Positions 16,339-32,903 of a stretch of DNA of 32,903 nt are shown here, one piece after another. Every line of letters starts with the position of its first letter. The stretch's first letter is position 1. Under the pieces are notes generated by a model. It had not been told where the DNA came from. It was given only the letters and a program-made list of their open reading frames with translations, and ran no database searches. Position numbers and translations under genes: made by a program. Origin of the DNA: Burkholderia sp. Ac-20379 (lineage in GTDB: Bacteria; Pseudomonadota; Gammaproteobacteria; Burkholderiales; Burkholderiaceae); assembly GCF_017104645.1 (NCBI RefSeq), contig NZ_JAAGPF010000054.1:1-32903 (forward strand), given 5' to 3'.

Positions 16339-16510
16339 TCGACCCCGCATGTTTCCGGGGACCGGCACCGAACCGGCACCCGGAACCGCGAATTCGCCCC
16401 CCACCCGCCAGACCATCGAAACCGCCACCCCAGCGCCACCCACAGTCACCGCAACAGACAATTCCTCGCTCCATACCCCAACGCCCGAAAAGCAAACCCG
16501 AATCGCTTAT

Positions 16511-16539
16511 TTGTCGTGGCGAAATCCACCGGTTTTAAT
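16511..16539 (+). promoter_or_regulatory. Predicted sigma70 promoter for ssuCBA-like operon
   Basis: TTGTCG (16511-16516), a 17-base spacer, and TTTAAT (16534-16539) form a good promoter in an AT-rich patch 72 bases upstream of the permease start. It lies in the 272-base gap after the first monooxygenase gene. Confidence 0.55.
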
Positions 16540-16610
16540 AACGAACCGACACACCGCATGCGGCGGCGTCCCCCAAACGCCGTCGCCCGCACGATTTCGC
16601 GAAGATTCAC

Positions 16611-17447
16611 ATGACCGATCTGACTTCCTCCCTCCCGGCCAGCGCGAGCGCCGACGCGCGGCGTCGCGGCCTGTCCCGGGCAACGCTCTATTGGTGGCTT
16701 TCGTGGGCCGTGCCGCTGGTGCTGGTGGTGCTCTGGGAGATCGGCGCGCGCACCGGCGTAATCGACCCGCAAGTGCTGCCCGCGCCGAGCCGCGTGGCGG
16801 AAACCGCGTGGGGCCTGATCGAATCGGGCGCGCTGTTCGTTCATCTCGGCGTGTCGCTGCTGCGCGCGGCCAGCGGCTTCCTGATCGGCGGCGCGGCGGG
16901 CTTCGTGCTCGGCGTGGCGGTGGGCTTCTCGCCGCTCACGCAGGCGCTGCTCGACCGCTCGATCCAGATGCTGCGCGCCGTGCCGTTTCTCGCGATGCTG
17001 CCGCTCGTGATCGTCTGGTTCGGCGTGGGCGAGACGGCGAAGATCTTCCTCGTGGCGCTCGCGGTGCTGTTCCCCATCTATATCAACACGGTGCTCGGCA
17101 TTCGCCAGATCGACCCGAAGCTGATGGAGCTCGGCAAGGTGGTGGGGCTGTCATGGCCGGCCGTCGTGCGCCGCATCATCCTGCCGGGCGCGATGCCGTC
17201 GATCCTGACCGGCGTGCGCTATGCGCTGGCCCATGCGTGGCTCGCGCTGGTGATCGCCGAGACGCTGGCGACCACCAAGGGCATCGGCTTCCTCGCGATG
17301 GACGCGCGCGAATTCCTGCAGACCGACATCATCGTGCTGACGATCGTGATCTACGCGGTGATCGGCGTGGTGGCCGACGCACTGGCCCGCGCGCTCGAAA
17401 CGCGCCTGCTGGCCTGGCATCCGAACTTTGCGAAGGAGTCCCGTTGA
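16611..17447 (+). CDS. Sulfonate-type ABC transporter permease (SsuC-like)
   Basis: A 278-residue inner-membrane permease of the NitT/TauT/SsuC family with about six membrane segments. The EAA-type loop contacting the ATPase is visible around ELGKVVGLSWPAVVRRIILP (about residues 172-191). AMPSILTGVRYALAHAWLAL and the HPNF C terminus are typical of aliphatic sulfonate permeases. It is the first gene of a tight block with the ATPase gene, whose ATG overlaps this stop (TGATG). Import of sulfonates or sulfate esters is the likely role; substrate range cannot be read from the permease alone. Confidence 0.88.
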   Translation: MTDLTSSLPASASADARRRGLSRATLYWWLSWAVPLVLVVLWEIGARTGVIDPQVLPAPSRVAETAWGLIESGALFVHLGVSLLRAASGFLIGGAAGFVLGVAVGFSPLTQALLDRSIQMLRAVPFLAMLPLVIVWFGVGETAKIFLVALAVLFPIYINTVLGIRQIDPKLMELGKVVGLSWPAVVRRIILPGAMPSILTGVRYALAHAWLALVIAETLATTKGIGFLAMDAREFLQTDIIVLTIVIYAVIGVVADALARALETRLLAWHPNFAKESR

Positions 17448-18193
17448 TGAGCACCGCCGATTACGCCACGCCGGTGGCGGCCGCACCGGCGCAAGCCGCC
17501 GCCGATCGTTTCGCGGGCGAGCCGCTGGCGGTCTCCGTCTCCGGGCTGCGCCGCCGTTATGGCTCGCGCGTCGTGATCGATGCGCTCGATCTGCAGATTC
17601 GCGAAGGCGAATTCGTCGCGCTGCTGGGCGAAAGCGGCTGCGGCAAGACCACCTTGCTGCGCGCGCTCGCCGGCCTCGACGCCGCCGATGCGGGCCGGAT
17701 TCATACGCCGCGCCGCGCGGCCGTGGTGTTCCAGGAGCACCGGCTGCTGCCGTGGGCGCGCGTGCACGAGAACGTCGTGCTCGGCAACGAGCGCACGGTG
17801 GGCCGCGCCGGCGCCGATCGCGCGCTGGCCGAAGTGGGCCTGGCGGGCCGCGAGGAGGATTGGCCCCGCAACCTGTCGGGCGGCCAGGCGCAGCGCGTCG
17901 CGCTGGCCCGGGCGCTGGTGCACGACCCGAAGCTGCTGCTGCTCGACGAGCCGTTCGCCGCGCTCGACGCGCTGACCCGCATCAAGATGCATGGGCTGGT
18001 CAAGGAGCTGGTGGCGCGGCACCGGCCGGGCGTGCTGCTCGTCACGCACGACGTGGACGAAGCGGTGGCGCTCGCCGACCGGATTCTCGTGATGCGGGCC
18101 GGCCGCATCGCCGACGTGCACCTGCCCGCGGACACCGATCCGAAGGCGTTGCGCGAAGCGCTGCTGGCCTCGCTGGGCGTGCAACTGCACTGA
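17447..18193 (+). CDS. Sulfonate-type ABC transporter ATPase (SsuB-like)
   Basis: A 248-residue ATPase with Walker A GESGCGKTT (61-69), a Q-loop in FQEHRLLPW, signature LSGGQ (143-147), Walker B LLLLDEP (163-169) and the switch His201. The motif spacing and the FQEHRLLPW sequence are typical of SsuB. An AAGGAGT ribosome site lies inside the end of the permease gene, and the start overlaps the permease stop by one base, so the two are translationally coupled. It energises the permease encoded just upstream together with the binding protein encoded downstream. Confidence 0.9.
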   Translation: MSTADYATPVAAAPAQAAADRFAGEPLAVSVSGLRRRYGSRVVIDALDLQIREGEFVALLGESGCGKTTLLRALAGLDAADAGRIHTPRRAAVVFQEHRLLPWARVHENVVLGNERTVGRAGADRALAEVGLAGREEDWPRNLSGGQAQRVALARALVHDPKLLLLDEPFAALDALTRIKMHGLVKELVARHRPGVLLVTHDVDEAVALADRILVMRAGRIADVHLPADTDPKALREALLASLGVQLH

Positions 18194-18362
18194 CTGACGC
18201 CCGCGCGCCGCGCATCGCCGCGGCGCACTCCCCGAATCCGATGGACGACGGCCCGAGCGCGCCGCGCGGCTCGTCGCGCCTTGCGCAAGCGTGTGCGCAG
18301 ACGCCGCCGCTATCCCGACACCGATATCGCAACACGCACCCGAGTAGACCAAGGAAACACGC

Positions 18363-19370
18363 ATGAACGATTTCACGTTGAGCCGCCGCCATCTGCTGCG
18401 CACCGCGGGCGGCCTGCTGGCCGGCGCGGCCACCGGGATCCTGCCCGCCGCCGCGTTCGCGGACACGCCGCGCAAGCCGACCCGCAACACCGACACGGTG
18501 CGGATCGGCTGGGGCCACGGCAGCCTGTCGCTGCTTGCCAAGCAGAGCGAAACATTTTCGAAGACGCTGGCCGGGCAGGGCATCAAGGTCGAATGGGTCG
18601 GCCCGTTCCCGAACCACGCACCGTCGCTGCAGGCGGTGATCGGCGGCAGCGCCGATTTCGGCTTCTGGGGCTCGACGACGCCCGCGCTGGCCGCGATGCT
18701 GGCCGGCGCGCCGCTGGTGTTCAACGAGTTCAACATCTACTCGCCGCGTTCGACGGCGATCATCGTCAAGAAGTCGAGCGGCATCAATTCGGTGGCCGAT
18801 CTGGTCGGCAAGAAGGTGGCGATCAACCGCTCGGGCCTCGGCGAATTCCTGCTGGTGGCGGCGCTCGAGCAGCACCATATCGACCGCAGCAAGGTGGAAT
18901 TCGTCTATCTGAACCCGCCCGACGCCGGCCCCGCCTTCGCGCAGGGCAAGGTGGACGCGTGGTCGATGTGGTCGCCGGCCGTCGACATCGCGCGCTTCGC
19001 GACCGATTCGAAGGACATCTTCAACGAAGGCCGCGACCTCAATTTCCTGATCGACTTCAACTCGCTCGTCACGCGCCGCAAGTTCAGCGAGGAGAATTCG
19101 GCGCTGGTGCGCGCGGTGATCGACGCCTACGTGAGCGTGGGCAACTGGCAATCGACGCATTCCGTGGAGTCCGAAAAGCTCGCGCAGGACGACGCCGGTT
19201 ACCCGAATCAGGTGCGCGATTACCTGGCGAGCCTGAAGCGCCAGAACAAGTTCTACGAAGCCGACAACACCGAATTCCGCGCCCGCTTCCAGCGCGCCGC
19301 GGATTGGCTGGCCGAGCGCCAGATCATTCGCTCGAAGGTCAATGTCGGCGATTACTGCGTCCGCGTCTGA
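18363..19370 (+). CDS. Sulfonate ABC transporter substrate-binding protein (SsuA-like, Tat exported)
   Basis: A 335-residue periplasmic binding protein of the NMT1/THI5/SsuA fold. The N terminus LSRRHLLRTAGG followed by a hydrophobic stretch and AFA is a twin-arginine signal, so export is probably in the folded state. The segments IGWGHGSLSLLAKQ and GGSADFGFWGSTTP are typical ligand-pocket regions of sulfonate-binding proteins. The ATG at 18363 follows AAGGAAAC. A 169-base gap separates it from the ATPase, and only 13 bases separate it from the next monooxygenase, which supports one operon. Confidence 0.88.
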   Translation: MNDFTLSRRHLLRTAGGLLAGAATGILPAAAFADTPRKPTRNTDTVRIGWGHGSLSLLAKQSETFSKTLAGQGIKVEWVGPFPNHAPSLQAVIGGSADFGFWGSTTPALAAMLAGAPLVFNEFNIYSPRSTAIIVKKSSGINSVADLVGKKVAINRSGLGEFLLVAALEQHHIDRSKVEFVYLNPPDAGPAFAQGKVDAWSMWSPAVDIARFATDSKDIFNEGRDLNFLIDFNSLVTRRKFSEENSALVRAVIDAYVSVGNWQSTHSVESEKLAQDDAGYPNQVRDYLASLKRQNKFYEADNTEFRARFQRAADWLAERQIIRSKVNVGDYCVRV

Positions 19371-23238: not shown

Positions 23239-24192
23239 TCATTGCAGCGTGGCGTTGAGGCCTTTCAGCGCGACGCTGTGGCGGCCGTCCACGCTGACCG
23301 GCACGTCGCCGTGCACGGTGGCGCGGCGCACCACGCGACGCGCGTCGCCGTAATCGTTGATCGCGTAGTGCTGGGTGGCGCGGTTGTCCCAGATCGCCAC
23401 GTCGCCCTCGCGCCAGTTCCAGCGCACGGTGTTCTCGAGGCGCGTCACGTGTTCGTGCAGCACCTGCAGCAGATGCGCTGAATCGCTGGCCGACAGGCCC
23501 TTGAGCCGCTGCACGAAGTGGCCGAGCACGAGCGTGCGCTCGCCCGTGACCGGGTGCACGCGCACCACCGGGTGCTCGGTTTCGTAGACGGTGGACGTGA
23601 ACACCTCGCGGTAGCGCTTGAGCTGATCCGAATCGGCGTTGACGTGCGAGGCGGCGTAGTCGTAGGCGTTGGTGTGCAGCGCCCACAGCGTGTCCACCAG
23701 CTCGCGCAGCGCGGTCGGCAGGTTGGTGTACGCGGTGGCCGTGTTGGCCCAGACGGTGTCGCCGCCGGCCGGCGGAATTACCACCGCGCGCAGGATCGAT
23801 ACCTTCGGGTAGGCGTCGACGAAGGTCACGTCGGTGTGCCAGGAATTGGCGCGCGCGCCGTGCGCCGAATCGAGTTCGAGCAGGCCGGCGCTGCCGTCGA
23901 CGGACGGCACGGTGGGGTGGGCTACCGTCTCGCCGAAGCGGCGTGCGAACGCTTCCTGCGCGGCGTCGTCGAGGTGCTGCTGGCCACGGAAGAACAGCAC
24001 CTTGTGCGTGTGCAGCGCATCGAGCAGCGCGTCGAACGTGGCGTCGTCGATGTCGCCCGACAGTTTGACATCTGAAATTTCCGCGCCGATCCGGCCGGCG
24101 ACGCGCCGCAATGCGAGCGGCGAGACCTGCGAGCGGGGGGCGTGGGCGGCGGCTTGCGGCGCGTGCGAGTGGGCGATCTGAACGTCGGACAT
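23239..24192 (-). CDS. TauD/TfdA-family Fe(II)/2-oxoglutarate dioxygenase 2
   Basis: A 317-residue dioxygenase with the metal triad His119/Asp121 (SWHTDVTF) and His275 (WDNRATQHYA), and the conserved RRVVRRATVHGD 2-oxoglutarate arginine region near the C terminus. That RATVHGD ending and the long histidine/alanine-rich N-terminal tail (first 20 residues) distinguish it from dioxygenase 1, so the pair are paralogues with likely different substrates. The start at 24192 (MSDVQIAHSH) follows GGAGA. It lies 117 bases downstream of the ATPase gene of the same strand, fitting an import-and-cleave operon for sulfonates or alkyl sulfates. Confidence 0.9.
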   Translation of the reverse strand: MSDVQIAHSHAPQAAAHAPRSQVSPLALRRVAGRIGAEISDVKLSGDIDDATFDALLDALHTHKVLFFRGQQHLDDAAQEAFARRFGETVAHPTVPSVDGSAGLLELDSAHGARANSWHTDVTFVDAYPKVSILRAVVIPPAGGDTVWANTATAYTNLPTALRELVDTLWALHTNAYDYAASHVNADSDQLKRYREVFTSTVYETEHPVVRVHPVTGERTLVLGHFVQRLKGLSASDSAHLLQVLHEHVTRLENTVRWNWREGDVAIWDNRATQHYAINDYGDARRVVRRATVHGDVPVSVDGRHSVALKGLNATLQ

Positions 24193-24309
24193 CGGGTGTC
24201 TCCTTCGGTGGGGAAAGCGGTTCGGATATTCAAGCAGCGCGCGCGGCAAAACAGAACTGACGATTCGTCGTATCGATAGCGCCGGCGCGCGAAAAGCGCT
24301 CTCGGCGGC

Positions 24310-25152
24310 CTACCAGGCGAGCCGCCAGTTGCCGGCCGGCAGCGGCGCGGCCGCGACGGGCGGGGCGATGCGCGCGGTGGCGTCGTCGTCGCCGAGATCG
24401 CTGAGGATCGCGTCGCGCAGTTGCGCGAACGCCGCGCCGTTGCGGTCGCGCGAGCGCGGCAGATCGACGTCGACGATCCGCGCGATGCGGCCCGGGCGCG
24501 GCGCCATCGTCACGACGCGATCGCCGAGCCAGACGGCTTCGTCCACGTCGTGCGTGACGAGAATCATGGTGATGCGTTCCTGCTGCCAGATCCGCTGCAA
24601 CTCGTGCTGCATGCGCGTGCGCGTTTGGGCATCGAGCGCGCCGAACGGCTCGTCGAGCAACAGCAGCCGCGGCCGGTTCACGAGCCCGCGCGCGATCGCG
24701 ACGCGCTGCGCCATGCCGCCCGACAACTGGCTCGGATACGCCTGCTCGAAGCCGTTCAGGCCGACCAGCGCGATGTGCTCGGCCACGGCCGCGCGCCGCG
24801 CCTTCGCGTCGAGCGGCGAATTGCGCAGCGCCGCTTCCACGTTCTGCGCGACGGTCAGCCACGGGAACAGCCGGTGATCCTGGAACACGATGCCGCGTTG
24901 CAGCGAGGTGTCGCGTACGCGCTCGCCGCCCGCACGGATCTCGCCGTCGTAGTCGACGTCGAGCCCGGCGATCAGCCGCAGCAACGTGGATTTCCCGCAG
25001 CCGCTGGCGCCCACGATGCTGACGAATTCCCCGCCGCGCACGTGCAGCGAAATGTCGTCGAGCACGTCGAGCGCTTGCGCGCCCGCGCCGTGCGGCGCGT
25101 AGCGCTTGCGCACATGCTGGATGTCGAGCGAATCGGAGAGGTCGAGCGTCAT
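24310..25152 (-). CDS. Sulfonate/nitrate-type ABC transporter ATPase
   Basis: A 280-residue SsuB/TauB-type ATPase with Walker A GASGCGKST (48-56), FQDHRLFPW Q-loop, signature LSGGM (143-147), Walker B LLLLDEP (163-169) and switch His201. A C-terminal extension of about 50 residues rich in alanine and proline is longer than in the plus-strand ATPase. Its start overlaps the end of the upstream permease gene by four bases (ATGA). It is the only ATPase in this operon, so it presumably serves both permeases. Confidence 0.9.
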   Translation of the reverse strand: MTLDLSDSLDIQHVRKRYAPHGAGAQALDVLDDISLHVRGGEFVSIVGASGCGKSTLLRLIAGLDVDYDGEIRAGGERVRDTSLQRGIVFQDHRLFPWLTVAQNVEAALRNSPLDAKARRAAVAEHIALVGLNGFEQAYPSQLSGGMAQRVAIARGLVNRPRLLLLDEPFGALDAQTRTRMQHELQRIWQQERITMILVTHDVDEAVWLGDRVVTMAPRPGRIARIVDVDLPRSRDRNGAAFAQLRDAILSDLGDDDATARIAPPVAAAPLPAGNWRLAW

Positions 25153-26003
25153 GAGGCTTCCCTGAGTGGCGAGGACGAATCGAGGGCGGTGGAGGCGGCA
25201 TCGACGGCGCGGGCGGCCCGGCCGCGCGCGAGCAGCCGGCGCTCGATGGCGCGCGCGCCCGCATTGAGCGCCCAGCCGGTGATGCCGACCACCAGGATGC
25301 CGAACAGCACGAGATCCATGCGGAACTGCTCGCTGCCGTCGATCAGCGTGTTGCCGATGCCGCTGCCGGCCACCAGCAGATATTCGGCGCCGAGCGTGGC
25401 GAGCCACGAATAGATCAGGCCCAGATAGAGGCCGGTGGAGATCGACGGCAGCGCGGCCGGCGCGATCACGTGGCGGATCAGTTGCCAGCGCGAGTAGCGC
25501 AGCGTGCGCGCCACTTCCACGTAGGCGCGCGGCACCGCGTGGATGCCGTCGCAGGTGTGCGCGGCCACCGGCAGCAGCGCGGCCAGCGACAGGAACACCA
25601 CCTTGGCGGTGTCGCCGAGCCCGAACCACACGGAAATCAGCGGGATCCAGGCGAACAGCGAAATCTGCTTGAACGTGTCGAAGGTGGGCCCGATCACGCG
25701 CGCGGCGAGCCGCGAGAGCCCGAGCGCCGTGCCGAGCAGCAGGCCGGCGGCCGTGCCGATCGCGAAGCCCGCGAACTCGCGCGCCAGCGAGGCCGACAGC
25801 GCCCGCGCCAGTGCGCCGCTTTCCATCTGCTGGCGGGCGGTGTGCAGCACGTCGGCGGGGCTGACCAGCAAGCCAGCGTGGCCGCGATGCGTGGCGGCGA
25901 TCAGCCACCAGGCCGCGAACGCCGCGAGCGGCAGCACGAGCCCGCGCAGGTCGGGCGCGCGCCAGCGGCCCGAGGTAGAGGTGAGGAATGCGAACGACGG
26001 CAT
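25149..26003 (-). CDS. Sulfonate-type ABC transporter permease A
   Basis: A 284-residue SsuC/TauC-family permease with about six membrane segments. The ATPase-contact loop is at EVARTLRYSRWQLIRHVIAP (about 170-190). The chosen start at 26003 (MPSFAFLTSTSG) has GGAG about 13 bases upstream; the frame extends further upstream without family resemblance. Coupled by ATGA to the ATPase gene. The C-terminal 30 residues are low-complexity and cytoplasmic. With permease B it could form a heterodimeric channel. Confidence 0.88.
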   Translation of the reverse strand: MPSFAFLTSTSGRWRAPDLRGLVLPLAAFAAWWLIAATHRGHAGLLVSPADVLHTARQQMESGALARALSASLAREFAGFAIGTAAGLLLGTALGLSRLAARVIGPTFDTFKQISLFAWIPLISVWFGLGDTAKVVFLSLAALLPVAAHTCDGIHAVPRAYVEVARTLRYSRWQLIRHVIAPAALPSISTGLYLGLIYSWLATLGAEYLLVAGSGIGNTLIDGSEQFRMDLVLFGILVVGITGWALNAGARAIERRLLARGRAARAVDAASTALDSSSPLREAS

Positions 26004-26061
26004 GATGCGGAACTCCGGCCAGGACGACGAAAGCGAAACGGATCGATAGCGGGGCGGCGGC

Positions 26062-26922
26062 TCAGGCCCGGAACGCGGAGGCCCGGCCGCGCCGCAGCCG
26101 CGCTTCCAGCGCATCGAGCAGGCGGTTGATCGCATAGCCGATCGCGCCGACGATCACCACCGCCGCCATCACGAGATCGAGCTGGAACAACTGCCGGCCA
26201 TACACGATCAGGTAGCCGAGCCCTTCCGAGGAGGCGACCAGTTCGACCACCACGAGCGCGAGCCAGGCCTTCGTGAACGCGAGCCGCACGCCGGTGGCCA
26301 GCGTGGGCACCGCGGCCGGCAGCACGACGTGCACGATCCGCTGGAACCGGCTGTAGCCGAACACGCGGGCGGCCTCGTCGAGGGCGGGCGGCGTCTCGCG
26401 AAAGCCTTGCAGCGTGCTCATCGCCACCGGCACCAGCGCCGCGTGCGCGATCAGGATGATCTTGAGCGGCTCGCCCACGCCCACCAGCAGCAACAGGAAC
26501 GGCAGCCAGCCGAGCACCGGAATCTGCACGATCGCGTTGAAGCTCGGCAGCACGTAGGCTTCGGCCGTGCGCGACAGCCCGAGCCAGGCGCCGATCGCGA
26601 AGCCCGCCAGCGAGCCCGCCGCGAAGCCGAAGAACACCCGTTGCAGGCTGATCCAGGTGTTGCTGAGCAGATCGCCGCTGCGCGCGAGTTCGGCGAGCGT
26701 CTGCCACACGGCTTCGGGCGGCGGCAGGATTTGCGGCGCGATCCAGCCGCGCTCGCAACCGATCGTCCACAGCGCGAACAGCGCGGCCGGCAGCAGCCAC
26801 GGCGCGACGGCCCAGCCGATCGCCGCAGCGCGGCGGCGCAGGGCGGGTTTCGCGCGCGGTGCGTCGGCGGTAGCGGCGGCCTGCTGCGCGCGCTCGCGGA
26901 TCGAAATCGCGGTATCGCTCAT
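26062..26922 (-). CDS. Sulfonate-type ABC transporter permease B
   Basis: A 286-residue permease of the same family, with a 35-residue cytoplasmic N-terminal tail before the first membrane segment. The ATPase-contact loop is EAARVFGYSRFQRIVHVVLP. The start at 26922 (MSDTAISIRER) lies 20 bases after the binding-protein stop. Most SsuABC/TauABC systems have one permease gene; here two different ones stand in a row before a single ATPase, suggesting a heterodimer or two alternative homodimers. Confidence 0.88.
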   Translation of the reverse strand: MSDTAISIRERAQQAAATADAPRAKPALRRRAAAIGWAVAPWLLPAALFALWTIGCERGWIAPQILPPPEAVWQTLAELARSGDLLSNTWISLQRVFFGFAAGSLAGFAIGAWLGLSRTAEAYVLPSFNAIVQIPVLGWLPFLLLLVGVGEPLKIILIAHAALVPVAMSTLQGFRETPPALDEAARVFGYSRFQRIVHVVLPAAVPTLATGVRLAFTKAWLALVVVELVASSEGLGYLIVYGRQLFQLDLVMAAVVIVGAIGYAINRLLDALEARLRRGRASAFRA

Positions 26923-26942
26923 CACGGCTCCCGAAGGCGTGC

Positions 26943-28043
26943 TCAGGTTTGCGGTTTGCCCGACGCGTCGTAGCTCGGCCAGTAGTGTTCGAGATGCTGG
27001 GCCTTCAGCGCGTTGTCGAGATACTTCGGTTCGATCCAGCCGTTGACGTCGGCAGGATGACGAATCAATTTGAGCTTCAGCGCGTCCGCCGCGACGGACG
27101 TGTAGCGCGCCACGAAGAACGGATCGAGCAGCGGCGATTCGCGCGACTTGAGCGTGCCGGCCGGGAATTCGGCCGCCCACGACGAAACGGGGATGCCCGT
27201 CTTCGCCCAGGTGTTCAGCAGCGCGTCGCGGTTGCCTTCGTCCGAGGCCCAGCGCGCGGCCGTCACGAACACGTTGACCACGCGCTGCACGATGTCCGGG
27301 TGCGCCTGCTCGAAATCGTCGAGCACCAGCAGATGCGATTGGCGCGTGAACTGCAGGCCCTGATCCTGCGACTGATAGATGATCTTCGCCAGCCCGGAAT
27401 CGACCAGCTTCGACAGGTGGTAATCGGTGACGGATGCGTCGATGCCCTTCGAGGCGAGCGCGGCCAGCGCGCTCGACGTGTCGAGGTTGATCACGCGCAG
27501 GTCGCGTTCGTCCAGGCCGTTGGCGGCCAGCACGTTGTCGATCACGAGCTGCAGGTTGGTGCCGCGGAAGATCGCGACGCGCTTGCCTTTCAGATCCTTC
27601 ACGGTGCGGATGTCGGAGCCGGTCGGCACGCCGATCTTGATGCCGCTGCGCACGCCCACGGCCGCGATCAGGTGCGTCTTCAGGCCGTTCGCGCGCGCCA
27701 GCACGGCAGGCAGATCGCCCTGCAGCGCGAAGTCGATCGACTTGTCGGCGATCGCCTCGTTGACGGCCGGCCCCGCGCCCTTGAAGAACAGCCACTGGAT
27801 GCGGATGCCCTCGCGCGCGAATTCCTTTTCGAGCAGCTTCTGCTGCTGCACGACGGCGCCGGGGTTGCTGCCGAACGTGGGCGGATCGCCCGCACCCTGT
27901 TCGGCCACGCCGATGCGGATGGTGTCGGGCGCGGCGGCATGGGCGGCGGCGCTCAGCGCGAGGGCGGTGGCCAGCAGCACGGGGCGCAGCAGCAGGCGGA
28001 TCAACGAATGGGGCTGAAAGCGGGGCGTGGAAAAGCGCGGCAT
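26943..28043 (-). CDS. Sulfonate-type ABC transporter substrate-binding protein
   Basis: A 366-residue periplasmic binding protein of the SsuA/TauA class. The Sec signal peptide has a basic start (MPRFSTPRFQPHSLIR), a long hydrophobic core and cleavage near AHA-A at about residue 36. Mature start PDTIRIGVAEQGAG and the segment KGKRVAIFRGTNLQLVID are typical of this fold. The start at 28043 follows an AGGAT site. It is the first gene of the minus-strand operon with two permeases, one ATPase and two dioxygenases. It is not Tat-exported, unlike its plus-strand counterpart, and the sequences are only distantly related, so ligands probably differ. Confidence 0.88.
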   Translation of the reverse strand: MPRFSTPRFQPHSLIRLLLRPVLLATALALSAAAHAAAPDTIRIGVAEQGAGDPPTFGSNPGAVVQQQKLLEKEFAREGIRIQWLFFKGAGPAVNEAIADKSIDFALQGDLPAVLARANGLKTHLIAAVGVRSGIKIGVPTGSDIRTVKDLKGKRVAIFRGTNLQLVIDNVLAANGLDERDLRVINLDTSSALAALASKGIDASVTDYHLSKLVDSGLAKIIYQSQDQGLQFTRQSHLLVLDDFEQAHPDIVQRVVNVFVTAARWASDEGNRDALLNTWAKTGIPVSSWAAEFPAGTLKSRESPLLDPFFVARYTSVAADALKLKLIRHPADVNGWIEPKYLDNALKAQHLEHYWPSYDASGKPQT

Positions 28044-28090
28044 GGATCCTCGGGGCGGCGGTGGGGCCGGTTCGATATTGGAGAGGAATA

Positions 28091-28157
28091 CGGATCGATT
28101 CGCGGTGCCGATCGATCCGGACGAATCATTCTTGTCGAGCGTTTGCCCGATCGCAAA
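28091..28157. promoter_or_regulatory. Inverted repeats upstream of the minus-strand sulfonate operon
   Basis: CGGATCGA (28091-28098) pairs with TCGATCCG (28112-28119), and a second inverted repeat TTTGC-N6-GCAAA lies at 28142-28157, in the 197-base gap between the binding-protein start and the porin stop. These are candidate operator sites for a LysR-type sulfur regulator (CysB or SsuR class), but no consensus was matched. Confidence 0.3.
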
Positions 28158-28206
28158 CAAGCATTTCTGATTTGCTTTCGTGCGGAGAATCCGCGCGAAC
28201 CGCAGC

Positions 28207-28230
28207 GAGCCGGCGCGATCGCGCCGGCTC
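28207..28230. terminator. Stem-loop after the porin gene
   Basis: GAGCCGGCGC (28207-28216) and GCGCCGGCTC (28221-28230) form a perfect ten-base stem with loop GATC just beyond the porin stop. No T tract follows on the minus strand, so it is a likely but non-canonical terminator. Confidence 0.5.
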
Positions 28231-28240
28231 GTCTGCTTGC

Positions 28241-29428
28241 TTAGAACTTCACGCGGATGCCGCCGAACGCCGCCACCTGGCGGTTGTTCGACGAGGCCGT
28301 GCCCGCGTCGGCGATCGCCGCGATCGAGCGGTAGCCGCTGCCCGCCACGGCCGTGCTCGCGTCGCCGGCCGCCAGTTGATAGACGCCCGACAGATACAGC
28401 TCGGTGCGCTTCGACAGCGCGTAATCCACGCCGAGCGTGAACTGGTGCCAGCGCGGCTTGAGCGTGCCGCCGCCCGCGCCCGGCAGGCCGCTCGCGCGGC
28501 CGTCGGTGAACGTGTAGACGCCGATCAGCGTGGTGGCGGGCGTGATGCGGTAGCGCGCGTTGACATCGTAGTTGTTGAGGCGGCGCGAGGAGCCGTCCAC
28601 GTAGTTCAGTTGCGAGTGGCTCCAGGCAAAGCCGAGGATCGCCGCGCCGAACGTGTAGTTCGCGCCCGCCACCGCGATCTGCTGCTTGGCCACGCCGCCG
28701 TTCAGGCCGTAGAAGAAGCCGCCGCTGTAATCGTCGCCCGCCGTGGTGCTCGCGCCGCCCACCGCGCCGCCAGTATTGCTCGTCGAGTTCGGATGGTTCA
28801 GCACCACGTAGCCCGCGCCGAGCGAGAGCGGGCCGTTCGCGTAGTTCGCGGCGATGCCCCACGCGCGGTTGTTGCCGAAGCCGGTGCCGGCGCCCGAGCC
28901 GGGCTGGTTGCTGAACGCATACAGGCCGTCCACGGTGAAGCCGGCGATCGTGTCGCTGCGGAACTTCACGGCGTTGTTGATGCGGAACGTCTGGTTCAGG
29001 TTGTCGTTGTCGCCCACGTGCGTGGCCGGCGACCAGAAGCCCGAGCCCGAGTATTGCGCGACCAGATCGGACAGCGGCTCGTACTGGCGGCCGAACGTCA
29101 GCGTACCGATGCCTTGCTTCGCAATCCCGACGAATGCCTGGCGGCCGAAGATGCGGCCGCCCTGGCCCAGCGTGCCGTCGTTGGTGCGGAAGCCGCTTTC
29201 CACCGTGAACACGGCCGACAAGCCGCCGCCTAGATCCTCGGTGCCCTTCAGGCCCCAGCGGCTGCCCGACAGCTTGCCGCTCGACTGCTGGATGTTCGAC
29301 GCGCCTTTCTGATTGTTCGTATACGCGATGCCCGCATCGACGATGCCGTACAGCGTGACCGAGCTTTGCGCATGCGCCGCCACCGAAGTGGCCGAGACGA
29401 GGCCGAGCGCCAGGGTTTTCTTCAACAT
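28241..29428 (-). CDS. Gram-negative trimeric porin (OmpC/Omp32-like)
   Basis: A 395-residue outer-membrane porin. The start at 29428 (MLKKTLALGLVSATSVAAHA) is a clean Sec signal peptide after AAAAGGAAT; the mature protein starts QSSVTLYGIVDAGI and contains LSGSRWGLKGTEDLGGGL and GRQAFVGI, signatures of betaproteobacterial porins. The C terminus ends GGIRVKF with the terminal phenylalanine required for barrel assembly. It lies between the sulfonate operon and the encapsulin operon, on the same strand as the former, with a stem-loop between. A role in uptake of sulfur compounds is suggested only by position. Confidence 0.92.
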   Translation of the reverse strand: MLKKTLALGLVSATSVAAHAQSSVTLYGIVDAGIAYTNNQKGASNIQQSSGKLSGSRWGLKGTEDLGGGLSAVFTVESGFRTNDGTLGQGGRIFGRQAFVGIAKQGIGTLTFGRQYEPLSDLVAQYSGSGFWSPATHVGDNDNLNQTFRINNAVKFRSDTIAGFTVDGLYAFSNQPGSGAGTGFGNNRAWGIAANYANGPLSLGAGYVVLNHPNSTSNTGGAVGGASTTAGDDYSGGFFYGLNGGVAKQQIAVAGANYTFGAAILGFAWSHSQLNYVDGSSRRLNNYDVNARYRITPATTLIGVYTFTDGRASGLPGAGGGTLKPRWHQFTLGVDYALSKRTELYLSGVYQLAAGDASTAVAGSGYRSIAAIADAGTASSNNRQVAAFGGIRVKF

Positions 29429-29777
29429 ACGATTCCTTTTGTATTGATCGCGAGTGGGAGAGGAACCCGATGCTAGGGATCCCCGCCCGCCGCACGAAGC
29501 AATGTTCCGGGAATAGCAAAGCAGAATTTCATGGTTGCGGGCATGCATCTCGCTGGGTGCGCGCGACGTCGGACAAAACGTATGGATGCCGAATGAAATG
29601 ATTGCGCCCGCATCGATAACGGAACTTGAGCGTCCGCTTCGCAAGGTCTTGAGAATTCCTTATCGAAAACGCAATGAAGCGAAATGGGGCGCGTTGACGT
29701 TTTTATGCGACGCGGCCGGCCCGGTTCCCGCCGCGGCCGATAAGCACCGGCCGGGCGCGGCGCATAACCTTAGGCGA

Positions 29778-29815
29778 ATTGATTGGTTCGCGGCCGCCGC
29801 GGCGCGTCATATCGT
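29778..29815 (+). promoter_or_regulatory. Shared motif, copy B (upstream of rhodanese operon)
   Basis: ATTGATTGGTTCG at 29778-29790 is identical to the block at 14850-14862, and TATCGT follows after the same 19 bases (29810-29815). It lies 205 bases upstream of the rhodanese start. Confidence 0.45.
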
Positions 29816-29853
29816 GATGGGGCGTTTCGTATGTTGCTGCTTTGGAAATGACA

Positions 29854-29865
29854 ATTGATTGGTTC
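29854..29865 (+). promoter_or_regulatory. Shared motif, copy C (upstream of rhodanese operon)
   Basis: ATTGATTGGTTC occurs again 76 bases downstream of copy B, 129 bases before the rhodanese start, nearly the same distance as copy A from its gene (124). The TATCGT element is not conserved here; GATAGC follows at 29882. Confidence 0.4.
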
Positions 29866-29982
29866 TCATCCGGCGCGGTGCGATAGCACAGTGGCGTTGA
29901 CGGCTATAGACGGCAGCGATGCCGCACCCGGACCGTCGCGTGGCCGTGCATCGGCACGGCACTGGACAGCAAGGAGGAACCC

Positions 29983-30444
29983 ATGACATTGACGACCGAA
30001 GCGCACGACATTCTCGAACAGGCCCGCACGGCGGCGCAGGCGCAGGGCCTGAGCTACGGCGGCGGCGTGGCCCCGGCGCAGGCCTGGGCGCTGGCCAGCG
30101 CCGGCGAGGCGCTGCTGATCGACGTGCGCACCGGCGAGGAGCGCAAGTTCGTCGGGCAGGTGCCGGGCACGCAGCACGTGGCCTGGGCCACCGGTACGAG
30201 CCTCACGCGCAACCCGCGCTTCGTGCGCGAGCTGGAGGCGAAGGCGGGCGGCAAGGACGCCGTGATCCTGCTGCTGTGCCGCAGCGGCAACCGCTCGGCG
30301 CAGGCGGCTGATGCGGCGGCCAAGGCCGGCTTCACGCAGGTCTACAACGTGCTCGAAGGCTTCGAGGGCGAACTGGACGACGCGCAGCAGCGCGGCGCCC
30401 GCAACGGCTGGCGCTTGCGCGGCCTGCCGTGGATACAGGATTGA
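29983..30444 (+). CDS. Rhodanese-domain sulfurtransferase
   Basis: A 153-residue single-domain rhodanese. LLIDVRTGEERKFVGQVPGT (about 44-63) is the CH2A-type motif and the active loop is CRSGNRS with Cys99, which would carry a persulfide. There is no signal peptide, so it acts in the cytoplasm. A strong AAGGAGGAA precedes the ATG. It is the first gene of the rhodanese, acetyltransferase, XRE, encapsulin, desulfurase series; rhodaneses are frequent neighbours of family 2A encapsulins, where they may move sulfane sulfur into or out of the stored pool. That role is inference. Confidence 0.9.
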   Translation: MTLTTEAHDILEQARTAAQAQGLSYGGGVAPAQAWALASAGEALLIDVRTGEERKFVGQVPGTQHVAWATGTSLTRNPRFVRELEAKAGGKDAVILLLCRSGNRSAQAADAAAKAGFTQVYNVLEGFEGELDDAQQRGARNGWRLRGLPWIQD

Positions 30445-30487
30445 CGAACCCGCGCAGAGCGCGCATCTGATTGACGAGGATCCCAAC

Positions 30488-31444
30488 GTGGCAGCATTCG
30501 ACATCGACGACGTGGTCCGCTCGCTGCATGCGGCGCGGCATGGCTGGCGCGAGCGCCAGCGGCGCCTGATCGAGCCGGGCGGGCGCGATTTGCCGTCGCG
30601 CGAGGCGCTCGGCGGCATCGTCGACGCGCTCAAGGGCGTGCTGTTCCCCATGCGGCTCGGGCCGCCCGACCTGCGCCAGGAAAGCGAGGATCTCTATGTG
30701 GCGCATGCGCTCGACGCCGCGCTGAACGCGCTGTTCTCGCAGGCGCGGCTCGAACTGCGCTATGCGGCGCGCTATCGCGACAGCGGCGACGCCACCGAGG
30801 CCGCCGCGCGCGCCGCGGTGCAGGCGTTCGCCGGGCGCTTGCCCGACATCCGCACGCGTCTCGACGAGGACGTGCTGGCCGCGTTCCACGGCGATCCGGC
30901 CGCGGGCAGCGTGGACGAAGTGCTGCTCTGCTACCCGGGCGTGCTCGCGATCCTGCATTACCGGCTCGCGCACGAACTCTACCGCCTCGGCCTGCCGCTG
31001 CTCGCACGCATGCTGGCCGAGCGCGCGCACGCCGATACCGGCATCGACATCCACCCCGGCGCGCGGATCGGCGCGGGCTTCTTCATCGATCACGGCACCG
31101 GCGTGGTGATCGGCGAGACGGCGATCATCGGCGAGCGCGTGCGCATCTATCAGGCGGTCACGCTCGGCGCGAAGCGCTTTCCGCGCGACGCGGCCGGGCA
31201 CCTGGAAAAAGGGCTGCCGCGCCATCCGCTGGTGGAGGACGACGTGGTGATCTACGCCGGCGCGACGATCCTCGGGCGCATCACGATCGGGCGCGGCTCG
31301 GTGATCGGCGGCAACGTCTGGCTCACGCACGACGTGCCGCCGGGCAGCCATGTGACGCAGGCCGTGCCGTCCACCGACGTGTCGCGGCCCGCGCCGAAGG
31401 CTGCGGCTCAGCCCGCTCAGGCCACCTCGGAGGCCACCTCATGA
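30488..31444 (+). CDS. epsC: Serine O-acetyltransferase, EpsC type
   Basis: A 318-residue enzyme that acetylates serine with acetyl-CoA, the first step of cysteine synthesis. An N-terminal helical domain is followed by left-handed parallel beta-helix hexapeptide repeats (DIHPGARIGAGFFIDHGTG, VIGETAIIGERVRIYQAVTLG) in the last third. The family is close to CysE but of the longer EpsC kind. The GTG at 30488 (VAAFDIDDVV) is chosen because GAGGA lies seven bases upstream and it starts 43 bases after the rhodanese stop; the longer frame overlaps the rhodanese gene. The C-terminal tail is Ala/Pro/Thr-rich. It overlaps the XRE gene by four bases. In family 2A encapsulin operons it supplies precursor for the cysteine consumed by the cargo desulfurase. 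Confidence 0.9.
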   Translation: MAAFDIDDVVRSLHAARHGWRERQRRLIEPGGRDLPSREALGGIVDALKGVLFPMRLGPPDLRQESEDLYVAHALDAALNALFSQARLELRYAARYRDSGDATEAAARAAVQAFAGRLPDIRTRLDEDVLAAFHGDPAAGSVDEVLLCYPGVLAILHYRLAHELYRLGLPLLARMLAERAHADTGIDIHPGARIGAGFFIDHGTGVVIGETAIIGERVRIYQAVTLGAKRFPRDAAGHLEKGLPRHPLVEDDVVIYAGATILGRITIGRGSVIGGNVWLTHDVPPGSHVTQAVPSTDVSRPAPKAAAQPAQATSEATS

Positions 31445-31671
31445 CGCAACTGGTTCGGCAATTCGGCGTCGCGGTGCGGCGCCTGCGCGAGACGCGCGCG
31501 TGGTCGCAGGAGCTGCTGGCCGAGCACGCGGGCTTGAACCGCTCGTATGTCGGCGAGATCGAGCGCGGCGAGGTGATCGCCTCGCTCGTCACGGTGGAAA
31601 AGCTCGCCAATGCGTTCGAGGTGCCGATCGCGTTGCTGCTGCGCCCGGCCACGGACGAACTCCCGGCCTGA
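31441..31671 (+). CDS. XRE-family helix-turn-helix regulator
   Basis: A 76-residue single-domain Cro/C1-type DNA-binding protein. The helix-turn-helix is in WSQELLAEHAGLNRSYVGEI (about 21-40), followed by ERGEVIASLVTVEKLANAFE, the usual conserved second half. No sensor domain is present. The ATG overlaps the acetyltransferase stop (ATGA), so it is made together with it. Position directly before the encapsulin gene makes it the best candidate for local control of the operon; its operator is unknown, though a GCGTCTGACGC palindrome lies at 31752-31762. Confidence 0.88.
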   Translation: MTQLVRQFGVAVRRLRETRAWSQELLAEHAGLNRSYVGEIERGEVIASLVTVEKLANAFEVPIALLLRPATDELPA

Positions 31672-31682
31672 TCGCAGGCATC

Positions 31683-31704
31683 GCGCGGCGCGCTCGCGCC
31701 GCGC
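31683..31704. terminator. Stem-loop after the XRE gene
   Basis: GCGCGGCGC (31683-31691) pairs perfectly with GCGCCGCGC (31696-31704), loop GCTC, followed by TTCCGGTTTCTCCC. It could terminate or attenuate the upstream transcript before the encapsulin gene. The T content after it is modest. Confidence 0.45.
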
Positions 31705-31730
31705 TTCCGGTTTCTCCCGTTGTTGCCGCG

Positions 31731-31748
31731 CCGGGCCGCTTGGCCCGG
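31731..31748. other. Second stem-loop before the encapsulin gene
   Basis: CCGGGCC (31731-31737) pairs with GGCCCGG (31742-31748) around GCTT. Together with the stem-loop 27 bases upstream it makes a structured gap between regulator and shell gene. Confidence 0.4.
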
Positions 31749-31751
31749 TGC

Positions 31752-31802
31752 GCGTCTGACGCCTATAGCATGTTGAGCGTCGATGGGCCCCGTCCCCATA
31801 AT
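31752..31802 (+). promoter_or_regulatory. Predicted promoter and palindromic operator before the encapsulin gene
   Basis: TTGAGC (31773-31778), an 18-base spacer and CATAAT (31797-31802) form a plausible sigma70 promoter about 50 bases before the shell start codon. A perfect 11-base palindrome GCGTCTGACGC (31752-31762) lies just upstream, and single GCGTC half-sites recur at 31777 and 31809. A second inverted repeat ATGGG-N7-CCCAT sits in the spacer. These are candidate sites for the XRE protein; no experimental or consensus support is available from sequence alone. Confidence 0.45.
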
Positions 31803-31853
31803 CGCCGGGCGTCATAAGCATTCCTGTTTTTCTTCTAAACCCGGAGCCCCGAC

Positions 31854-32786
31854 ATGTCGACCGTAGCAAACGGCCCGACCACGCTGAGCGATCACGCCGC
31901 ACGCCAGCTTGCGAATGCCACCAAGACCGTTCCCCAGCTTTCCACCATCACGCCGCGCTGGCTGACCCATTTCCTGCAATGGGTGCCCGTGGAGGCCGGC
32001 ATCTATCGCCTGAACCAGGTGAAGGATCCGGAAGCCGTGCGCGCCGCGTGCACGCAACTGGAAGACGAGCGCGAACTGCCGAAGACGTTCGTGCCGTACG
32101 AGGAACAGCCGCGCGAGTATTTCCTGAACGCGGTCAGCACCGTGCTCGACGTGCATACGCGGATCTCCGATCTCTACAGCAGCCCGCACGACCAGATCAA
32201 GGAACAACTGCGCCTGACGATCGAGACGATCAAGGAGCTGCAGGAAAGCCAACTGATCAACAATCCCGACTATGGCTTGCTGGCGAACGTGGCCGAGGAA
32301 CAGCGCGTGTTCCCGCTGACTGGCGCGCCCACGCCCGACGATCTCGACGAGCTGCTGACCAAGGTCTGGAAGGAACCCGCGTTCTTCCTGACGCACCCGC
32401 TCGCGATCGCCGCGTTCGGCCGCGAATGCACGCGTCGCGGCGTGCCGCCGCCGACCGTCAGCCTGTTCGGCTCGCAGTTCATCACGTGGCGCGGCATTCC
32501 GCTGATCCCGTCGGACAAGGTGCCGGTGGCCGACGGCAAATCGAAGATCCTGCTGCTGCGCGTGGGCGACAAGCGCCAGGGCGTGGTCGGCCTCTACCAG
32601 CCGGGCGTGGCCGGCGAACAGGGCCCGGGCCTGTCGGTGCGCTTCATGGGCATCAACAACCAGGCGATCGCGTCGTACCTGATTTCGCTGTACTGCTCGC
32701 TGGCCGTCCATTCGGTGGACGCGCTCGCGGTTCTCGATGACGTGGAGATCGGCAAGTACCATGACTACCCCGACACCTACCGCTGA
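31854..32786 (+). CDS. srpI: Family 2A encapsulin nanocompartment shell protein (SrpI type)
   Basis: A 310-residue HK97-fold shell protein. Recognition rests on the overall sequence: N-terminal LSDHAARQLANATKTVPQ, ITPRWLTHFLQWVPVEAGIYRLN, the segment FLTHPLAIAAFGRECTRRGVPP, SLFGSQFITWRGIPLIPSDK, and the end VEIGKYHDYPDTYR, all characteristic of SrpI/family 2A shells, whose members self-assemble into roughly 25 nm T=1 cages. Length is normal. The start at 31854 (MSTVANGPTTLSD) follows a GGAG site. The downstream cysteine desulfurase begins inside its last 26 bases. Known family members package a cysteine desulfurase and, in a studied case, store elemental sulfur. Identification of the family is firm; sulfur storage in this organism is inferred. 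Confidence 0.95.
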   Translation: MSTVANGPTTLSDHAARQLANATKTVPQLSTITPRWLTHFLQWVPVEAGIYRLNQVKDPEAVRAACTQLEDERELPKTFVPYEEQPREYFLNAVSTVLDVHTRISDLYSSPHDQIKEQLRLTIETIKELQESQLINNPDYGLLANVAEEQRVFPLTGAPTPDDLDELLTKVWKEPAFFLTHPLAIAAFGRECTRRGVPPPTVSLFGSQFITWRGIPLIPSDKVPVADGKSKILLLRVGDKRQGVVGLYQPGVAGEQGPGLSVRFMGINNQAIASYLISLYCSLAVHSVDALAVLDDVEIGKYHDYPDTYR

Positions 32787-32903
32787 TCTGGCGGCCCCGG
32801 GCGCTCGCGCGCCCGCCGGGCTGCCCGATCCGGCGGCGCTCGCGCAGTTGGCGAACGCGTTCTTCTCGGCCTTGCCGGGGCGCGCCGATGCGCCGGGCGC
32901 GGC
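32761..32903 (+). CDS. Cysteine desulfurase cargo of the encapsulin, 5' end only (3' partial)
   Basis: An open frame starts at the ATG at 32761, 26 bases before the shell stop and in another frame, and runs to the window edge (47 whole codons). The visible peptide is Ala/Pro-rich and disordered (MTTPTPTADLAAPGARAPAG), then LPDPAALAQLANAFFSALPG, a short helical-looking segment. Cargo desulfurases of family 2A encapsulins carry just such a long disordered N-terminal cargo-loading domain with short conserved motifs before the PLP-binding SufS-like domain. The catalytic domain lies outside the window, so the call depends on this N terminus plus its place after the shell gene. Overlapping translation suggests coupled synthesis of shell and cargo. 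Confidence 0.82.
   Translation, partial: MTTPTPTADLAAPGARAPAGLPDPAALAQLANAFFSALPGRADAPGA

What the first reader, a model, noticed from the sequence alone, without database searches (positions are those of the whole stretch)
29983..32903. Complete front end of a family 2A encapsulin sulfur-compartment operon
Rhodanese, EpsC-type serine acetyltransferase, XRE regulator, SrpI-type shell and the disordered N terminus of the cargo desulfurase stand in one direction with overlaps. Family 2A encapsulins with cysteine desulfurase cargo are known to act in sulfur metabolism, with elemental sulfur storage shown in at least one bacterium. Here the whole biosynthesis-to-storage set is together: cysteine precursor supply, sulfur transfer, shell and cargo. 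The family is described, but I know of no detailed study in this Burkholderia-type setting.
Basis: partly seen in the sequence, partly recalled or inferred. Interest (0 to 1): 0.85.

Follow-up and report, generated by a model that had tools for sequence, protein, structure and literature searches.

The report
Encapsulin sulfur operon with switch-like regulator
This is the front half of a known bacterial protein-cage operon for handling sulfur, ordinary in Burkholderia relatives, but it carries a small regulator whose two likely DNA binding sites, one at each promoter, can now be named and tested.

Summary
Rhodanese, EpsC-type serine acetyltransferase, small XRE regulator, family 2A encapsulin shell and the first 47 codons of the cargo lie in one direction. 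The window is the whole contig, which ends inside the cargo gene; no cargo-type desulfurase domain was found elsewhere in the assembly, so it is inferred from relatives. The operon is ordinary: 52 of 65 genomes of the genus have the shell, and published surveys describe such operons.

Six encapsulin literature searches gave nothing on its control. An 18-bp element (TGNYGNCTATAG...) lies about 99 nt before the shell and again before the rhodanese. With a 16-base pattern, 97 of 100 hits in 65 genomes fall at these two places. A model trained on Burkholderia ranks the shell-side site first or second in 58 of 61 other loci; the three misses lack a local regulator gene. The 76-residue regulator's best solved relatives are restriction-modification controller proteins (C.BclI, C.AhdI); a third, C.Esp1396I, has TATA-centred operators of similar architecture, although C.AhdI's box is described differently. 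I propose an autoregulatory switch on both promoters. Binding, and activation or repression of the shell promoter, are untested.

The parts
29842..29865 (+). Conserved AT-rich element upstream of the rhodanese promoter (TTGGAAATGA-N3-TT-N-ATTGGTTC); possible activator site
   Evidence: Conserved in the alignment of rhodanese upstream regions; the only site in the own genome with up to 3 mismatches. Binding protein unknown.
29898..29915 (+). Predicted XRE operator, rhodanese side (TGACGGCTATAGACGGCA)
   Evidence: rhodanese-side copies are symmetric beyond shuffles.
29983..30444 (+). Single-domain rhodanese, active-site loop CRSGNRS
   Evidence: PF00581 48.5 bits; C[RK]SGxR in 77 of 77 relatives found.
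30488..31444 (+). Serine O-acetyltransferase, EpsC type (start GTG inferred)
   Evidence: NF041874 163.4 bits over cut-off 150; TIGR01172 173.1 under cut-off 210.65 (run on the longer ORF from 30311); PDB serine acetyltransferases, best 3f1x 255 bits.
31441..31671 (+). 76-residue XRE/HTH regulator, resembles restriction-modification controller proteins
   Evidence: PF01381/PF13560; PDB best C.BclI 47.6 bits, C.AhdI 42.9 bits.
31757..31774 (+). Predicted XRE operator, shell side (TGACGCCTATAGCATGTT)
31773..31802 (+). Sigma-70-like promoter of shell and cargo (TTGAGC, 18 nt, CATAAT)
   Evidence: Only promoter-like match in 29500-32903, 0.2 expected. In 78 sequences, choosing the best -10 among spacers 16-19, the spacer is 17 or 18 in 77; the -10 matches 5 of 6 in 59, 4 of 6 in 1 and only 3 of 6 in 18.
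31814..31832 (+). Conserved leader element ATAAGCA-N5-GTTTTTC, function unknown
   Evidence: one exact site in the own genome and four with 2 mismatches, against 8 for the reversed control; also before two shells that lack the XRE operator (L066, L068, sequences printed).
31854..32786 (+). Family 2A encapsulin shell protein
   Evidence: NF041162 524.7 bits, PF19307 332.4 bits, SrpI-type structures.
32761..32903 (+). Cargo gene, first 47 codons only (contig ends)
   Evidence: Open frame with LAQLANAFFS; 58% identical to the L006 cargo N terminus, whose whole protein scores NF041166 958.5 bits.

Best explanation
A family 2A encapsulin operon for sulfur handling. The serine acetyltransferase supplies O-acetylserine for cysteine synthesis. 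The shell cages a SufS-type cysteine desulfurase that takes sulfur from cysteine, and the rhodanese is the likely sulfur acceptor or carrier. In Burkholderiales it is run as two transcription units, rhodanese-acetyltransferase-XRE and shell-cargo. The operon's own small XRE protein is the regulator of both: as a dimer it binds a TATA-centred element before the rhodanese and again directly upstream of the -35 box of the shell promoter, so its own level sets shell and cargo expression. Shown here: gene content, order, conservation, the two paired sites and their link to the XRE gene. Inferred: that XRE dimerises and binds them, that regulation is autogenous, and the sign of the effect. Repression of both promoters is my first choice (about 60:40), because in the window the shell promoter is fair to consensus and the site touches its -35 box. 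The biochemical roles are taken from published relatives.
For: Gene identities. Pattern TGAYGNCTATAGNNNG: 100 sites in 65 genus genomes, 46 at 97-104 nt before the shell, 51 on the rhodanese side, 3 elsewhere (reversed-pattern control 28 by my count); both sites in 46 of 52 shell-bearing genomes, one in 5, none in 1; of 13 shell-less genomes one has a single site. In the window 2 matches against 0.00 expected. Held-out test: a matrix from 20 Burkholderia sequences ranks the shell-side site first or second in 58 of 61 other loci; the 3 misses (L066, L068, L079) lack a local XRE gene; the rhodanese-side site ranks first or second in 46 of 58. L079's genome has no close XRE (best 2.9e-6); L060 lacks a local XRE but its genome has one at 4.2e-26 and the site is kept. 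Rhodanese-side copies are symmetric: 2.79 of 7 flank positions against 1.70 shuffled, 0 of 2000. In 17 loci the XRE reading frame runs through the shell-side site and in 52 the site is non-coding, so the DNA word itself is kept. XRE resembles C.AhdI, 27 of 55 aligned residues identical. The C.Esp1396I operators are pseudo-symmetric with TATA between GAC and GTC and an outer TG (PMC3758141, introduction read).
Against: No binding or expression data. Shell-side copies are not symmetric beyond the core (1.38 against 1.42 shuffled). Sequences are related, so counts are not independent. L079 keeps a rhodanese-side site without a close XRE in its genome. L066 and L068 lack the site although their genomes have an XRE elsewhere (1.5e-24, 3.1e-29); both also lack rhodanese and acetyltransferase, so a different lineage may explain it. 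The rhodanese-side site fails the rank test in 12 of 58 loci, partly by variant cores. Outside the genus a laxer pattern gives many background hits, and its reversed control often more (39 genomes). The closest solved relatives are C.BclI and C.AhdI, and C.AhdI's box is given as AGTCCN2GGACT (PMC5282649 passage), not TATA-centred; the TATA-centred comparison rests on C.Esp1396I, a weak sequence match (18.3 bits, E 0.027). XRE has V45 where C.BclI and C.AhdI have arginine.
Confidence: 0.7

Rival explanations
1. The operon is an ordinary family 2A encapsulin locus and the shared element is bound by another regulator, for example a general sulfur-starvation factor, while XRE controls something else.
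For: Two further conserved elements lie in the same promoter regions. One of them is also found before shells without XRE (L066, L068), so another input exists. The window also holds a sulfonate-type transporter. L066, L068 and L079 do not follow the simple rule.
Against: A general factor should have many sites. The pattern has only 3 off-operon sites in 65 genomes, and on the shell side the site ranks first or second in 77 of 77 sequences that have a local XRE gene (window and 76 loci; 20 of these trained the matrix).
Confidence: 0.18
2. The element is only core promoter sequence that looks shared by chance or common descent, not an operator.
For: The shell copy touches the -35 box and is not symmetric; relatives are close.
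Against: The left half (11 of 12 bases identical in the window, 12 of 12 in many relatives, list) recurs 1.86 kb upstream at another promoter, that copy is symmetric, and the word persists whether coding or non-coding.
Confidence: 0.09
3. The cargo gene is truly broken in this strain and the shell is a relic.
For: No cargo desulfurase domain found in a 99.58% complete assembly.
Against: Other assemblies also end soon after the shell (L018 23 nt, L067 75 nt, L054 162 nt), which points to a region that is hard to assemble. The shell is 95% identical to its nearest relatives.
Confidence: 0.08

Closest known systems
Synechococcus elongatus SrpI / CyD operon on pANL (family 2A encapsulin)
   Same: Shell 72.8% identical over 98% of the query; EpsC, desulfurase and rhodanese genes alongside; cargo with a disordered N terminus and LARLANEFFS-type motif (PMC8049743 passages).
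   Different: Order is cysK-epsC-srpI-cyd-rhodanese; no XRE match in the fetched stretch (tblastn E up to 0.01). A reference title in PMC8049743 names sulfur availability and CysR as regulators of genes on a cyanobacterial plasmid.
Family 2A desulfurase operons surveyed in PMC8346489
   Same: Shell, desulfurase with disordered N terminus, serine acetyltransferase and rhodanese; Burkholderia cepacia named (passages).
   Different: 'xre' has 0 occurrences in the main text, and the passages I saw name no operator.
Acinetobacter baumannii family 2A locus (L173)
   Same: Rhodanese 63%, acetyltransferase 63%, shell 80% identical, same order.
   Different: No XRE match (tblastn E up to 0.01). No operator pair: the best two matrix words lie elsewhere, and a weak third one (12.4 bits) lies between acetyltransferase and shell.
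Controller (C) proteins of restriction-modification systems: C.AhdI, C.BclI, C.Esp1396I
   Same: Single-domain HTH of about 75-80 residues; recognition helix NRSYVGEIERG against DRSYVGGVERG in C.AhdI; the predicted site shares TATA centre, flanking G-N-C and outer TG with C.Esp1396I operators (spacing of the TG recalled).
   Different: Gene sits in an encapsulin operon; arginine at position 45 is replaced by valine; one site per promoter instead of the OL+OR pair of C.Esp1396I; C.AhdI's box is described as AGTCCN2GGACT.

Membership tests
Family 2A encapsulin system | Shell of the SrpI-like family, without a cNMP domain | tested here: met
   NF041162 524.7 bits over nearly the whole protein, cut-off 380; Pfam finds only SrpI-like in 310 aa. 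It also passes the 2B model (409 against 400) through the shared shell domain.
Family 2A encapsulin system | Cargo with disordered N terminus and loading motif | tested here: inconclusive
   47 codons with LAQLANAFFS against the published LARLANEFFS: motif met. Disorder not computed and the rest is cut off. A loose LxxLAxx[FL] pattern is found in 59 and PYYF in 39 of 78 relatives' cargo N termini.
Family 2A encapsulin system | SufS-type desulfurase domain on the cargo | tested here: inconclusive
   Contig ends; not found elsewhere in the assembly. The L006 cargo scores NF041166 958.5 bits; cargo matches in 78 of 80 relatives' loci, some cut by contig ends.
Family 2A encapsulin system | Assembles a cage and sequesters sulfur | not testable with these tools
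   Needs electron microscopy and chemistry. Sulfur storage in one bacterium is recalled; the library search did not list such a paper.
Restriction-modification controller (C) proteins | Small single-domain HTH protein related in sequence | tested here: met
   C.BclI 1.5e-11 and C.AhdI 4.5e-10 are the two best PDB matches.
Restriction-modification controller (C) proteins | Pseudo-symmetric operators at its own promoter | tested here: inconclusive
   Predicted sites fit the C.Esp1396I type but not the box given for C.AhdI; binding not shown; shell copy not symmetric.
Restriction-modification controller (C) proteins | Gene lies in a restriction-modification system | tested here: not met
   Its neighbours are a serine acetyltransferase and an encapsulin shell. 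The five nearest plasmid-collection relatives (64-75%) also lie beside a shell, by coordinates. It may work like a C protein but is not filed as one.
Restriction-modification controller (C) proteins | Base-contacting residues R35, T36, R46 of C.Esp1396I | tested here: inconclusive
   R34 and S35 as in C.AhdI; the loop arginine is V45. Equivalence to C.Esp1396I numbering is my inference through C.AhdI and C.BclI.

The most novel reading that the evidence does not exclude
The XRE is a controller-protein-like timer: it represses its own rhodanese-acetyltransferase promoter and, bound about 43 nt upstream of the inferred shell transcription start, activates the shell-cargo promoter. Cysteine precursor supply would come first and the cysteine-consuming cage later, with switch-like expression, a logic known from restriction-modification systems and not found for a protein organelle in my searches. 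Probability lowered from 0.25 to 0.22 on re-check, because C.AhdI's box differs.
Probability: 0.22. Interest if true: 0.72.

Novelty: new variant of a known kind. Interest (0 to 1): 0.5.

Why it matters
How family 2A encapsulins are switched on is little described in what I could search. The paired sites and the adjacent regulator turn that into a two-oligo binding test and a two-promoter reporter test, and suggest that a regulator of the restriction-modification type was built into an organelle operon in one bacterial order.

Tried and rejected
C30:528 looked at first like the missing cargo half; its frame has stops upstream and reads as IscS-like with a rhodanese-like tail, so I rejected it. 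I suspected the AT-rich element before the rhodanese to be a general CysB-type box (recalled idea); it has no second site in the own genome with up to 3 mismatches, so that is unsupported, though such boxes can be degenerate. No Rfam family reaches its gathering score in 24000-32903. Matrix words do not mark the two promoters in the loci of Methylosinus, Azospirillum, Aliarcobacter, Synechococcus or Acinetobacter (one weak third-ranked word in Acinetobacter lies between acetyltransferase and shell). A structure prediction of XRE was queued and not finished at seven collections, so no fold comparison was made.

My first count of the rhodanese-side site by the exact core CTATAG (58 of 81) is too low for Comamonadaceae-type loci, which carry variant cores such as TGATGGTTATCGCCATCA; one search replaces it. 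In PMC8049743 the main text has no hit for rhodanese, serine acetyltransferase or regulator. On re-check I dropped a claim that the operators of C.BclI and C.AhdI are TATA-centred: no call shows it and one search gives another box for C.AhdI. For that reason confidence went from 0.72 to 0.70 and the novel case from 0.25 to 0.22.
Full report
What is there. The shell is a family 2A encapsulin: NF041162 524.7 bits against a cut-off of 380, and the SrpI structure sequence 6x8m matches with 488 bits. The refuting case 'aligns with phage capsids' is excluded at sequence level. The cargo gene begins at 32761, overlapping the shell by 26 nt, and is cut by the end of contig C530 at 32903.

The desulfurase of this strain is not seen. 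I searched the own assembly (7.40 Mb, 826 contigs, 99.58% complete) with a relative's whole cargo protein, with the cargo family model and with the relative's DNA. The best matches are 35% identical or less, apart from the 47-codon start itself; the DNA search scored 40 of 1112 candidates. A gap is likely: the contigs of L018, L067 and L054 also end 23, 75 and 162 nt after the shell.

How ordinary it is. Of these 80, 77 have the rhodanese, 76 the acetyltransferase, 76 the XRE and 78 cargo sequence, in the same order, and 73 have all five (my count of rows). The seven exceptions are L018 and L067 (contig ends at the very start of the cargo), L057 (no acetyltransferase match), L079 (no XRE) and L060, L066, L068 (shell and cargo only). 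Within the window's genus 52 of 65 genomes have the shell, at 93-95% identity apart from the window itself. PMC8346489 (passages) counted 1281 family 2A desulfurase operons, names acetyltransferases and rhodaneses as the most enriched accessories, and lists desulfurase systems in Burkholderia cepacia.

Aligning the XRE-shell intergenic region and the rhodanese upstream region showed a shared word, TGAYGGCTATAG. In the window it lies at 29898 (TGACGGCTATAG) and, with one base different, at 31757 (TGACGCCTATAG): 2 matches of the pattern, 0.00 expected in shuffles. Across 65 whole genomes of the genus the 16-base pattern gives 100 sites: 46 lie 97-104 nt before the shell (39 of them at exactly 99), 51 lie 1.9-3.2 kb before it, on the rhodanese side, and 3 are elsewhere. 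46 of 52 shell genomes have both, 5 have only the rhodanese-side one, and G017 has none by the exact pattern but shows a variant, TGTCGTCTATAGCATG, before its shell. Of the 13 shell-less genomes one (G015) has a single site. The reversed-pattern control gives 28 scattered hits (my count).

Held-out test. A symmetric matrix from 20 Burkholderia sequences (9 distinct sites) was run over the 61 other loci. The shell-side site is the best or second best word of the whole locus in 58 of 61; the rhodanese-side one in 46 of 58. The three shell-side misses are L066, L068 and L079, all without a local XRE gene. The fourth locus without a local XRE, L060, has the site, and its genome has an XRE elsewhere (4.2e-26). 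Against this: the genomes of L066 and L068 also have an XRE elsewhere, L079 keeps a rhodanese-side site although its genome has no close XRE (best 2.9e-6), and L066 and L068 lack the other two upstream genes as well. None of the 13 shell-less genus genomes has a close XRE (best 46 bits, 45% identity). In other genera a laxer pattern also hits elsewhere, and the reversed control often hits more (39 genomes), so the near-exclusive placement is shown only for the genus. A further named locus, on a Variovorax plasmid, has both sites as its two best words.

Nature of the site. Rhodanese-side copies are symmetric around CTATAG: 2.79 of 7 flank positions pair against 1.70 after shuffling, 0 of 2000, 28 distinct copies. 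Shell-side copies are not (1.38 against 1.42, 29 distinct copies); their right half runs into the -35 box. The shell promoter (TTGAGC, 18 nt, CATAAT) is the only promoter-like match in the region. Over 78 sequences the best -10 lies 17 or 18 nt from the -35 in 77, but in 18 of them it matches only 3 of 6 bases. No promoter-like match was found before the rhodanese. In 17 loci the XRE frame reads through the shell-side site; in 52 the site is non-coding; 7 touch it by 2 nt. The same DNA word is thus kept under different coding states.

The regulator. The 76-residue XRE shows no second domain and no cysteine. Its best solved relatives are C.BclI and C.AhdI; it shares 27 of 55 aligned residues with C.AhdI and 24 of 70 with C.BclI. 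C.Esp1396I, a weaker match (18.3 bits), binds pseudo-symmetric sites with TATA between GAC and GTC and an outer TG (PMC3758141, introduction read); [quoted passage not shown] The predicted site, TGNNGNC-TATA-GNC, has that architecture with a freer middle base. Two facts weaken the analogy: C.AhdI's box is described as AGTCCN2GGACT (PMC5282649 passage), and this XRE lacks the loop arginine that in C.Esp1396I contacts the boxes (PMC4041747 passages; equivalence inferred). I take the resemblance as support that this XRE reads this site, not as proof.

Mechanism. Most likely the XRE controls both promoters and so its own level. Repression of both is the simple reading; activation of the shell promoter is the bold one, since the site centre is about 43 nt upstream of the inferred start (inference from the -10 position). 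No signal is known: the regulator has no sensor domain. The two further conserved elements (29842-29865 and 31814-31832) may carry the sulfur signal; the second is also present before two shells without the operator.

Verdict. The operon is a known kind and ordinary in its order of bacteria. The built-in controller-like regulator with paired operators is not described in what my searches returned (for encapsulins; 41, 57, 66 for CysB and C proteins; an open-access library only). That makes it a new variant worth a bench test, not a new kind of system.

Noticed in passing
window 25149-28043: Minus-strand sulfonate-type ABC transporter (SsuA-family binding protein 161.6 bits, just under its cut-off 163.5; two permeases) beside the operon; another NMT1-type binding protein and an ABC ATPase at 16319-19367. 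The region may be a sulfur-acquisition cluster.
   Followed up: partly
window 28241-29576: The porin block is 84-85% identical to G014 and G028, two genus genomes without the encapsulin shell, so the operon sits in a neighbourhood that lacks it in these relatives.
   Followed up: partly
window 31814-31832; L066, L068 upstream of shell: Leader element ATAAGCA-N5-GTTTTTC between the -10 box and the shell start, with similar words before two shells without the XRE operator; function unexplained.
   Followed up: partly
window 29842-29865: Conserved AT-rich element upstream of the rhodanese promoter, single-copy in the own genome with up to 3 mismatches.
   Followed up: partly
L064, L065, L067, L069-L077, L080, L081, L083-L085: The XRE reading frame ends inside the shell-side operator, so that the site also encodes the last residues of its presumed binder.
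   Followed up: yes
L066, L068: Shell and cargo copies without rhodanese, acetyltransferase, XRE or operator, in genomes that have an XRE elsewhere: perhaps a second, differently regulated version.
   Followed up: no
L049 and L053: Paraburkholderia xenovorans LB400 carries two full operons, on chromosomes 3 and 2, each with both sites.
   Followed up: no
G000 C30:528-1610 (L087): IscS/NifS-like desulfurase with a C-terminal rhodanese-like tail (my reading) elsewhere in the own genome.
   Followed up: no
window 30488-31444: The acetyltransferase lacks a C-terminal isoleucine (1 of 76 relatives ends in it); in CysE that residue docks into cysteine synthase (recalled), so this enzyme may not form that complex.
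   Followed up: no
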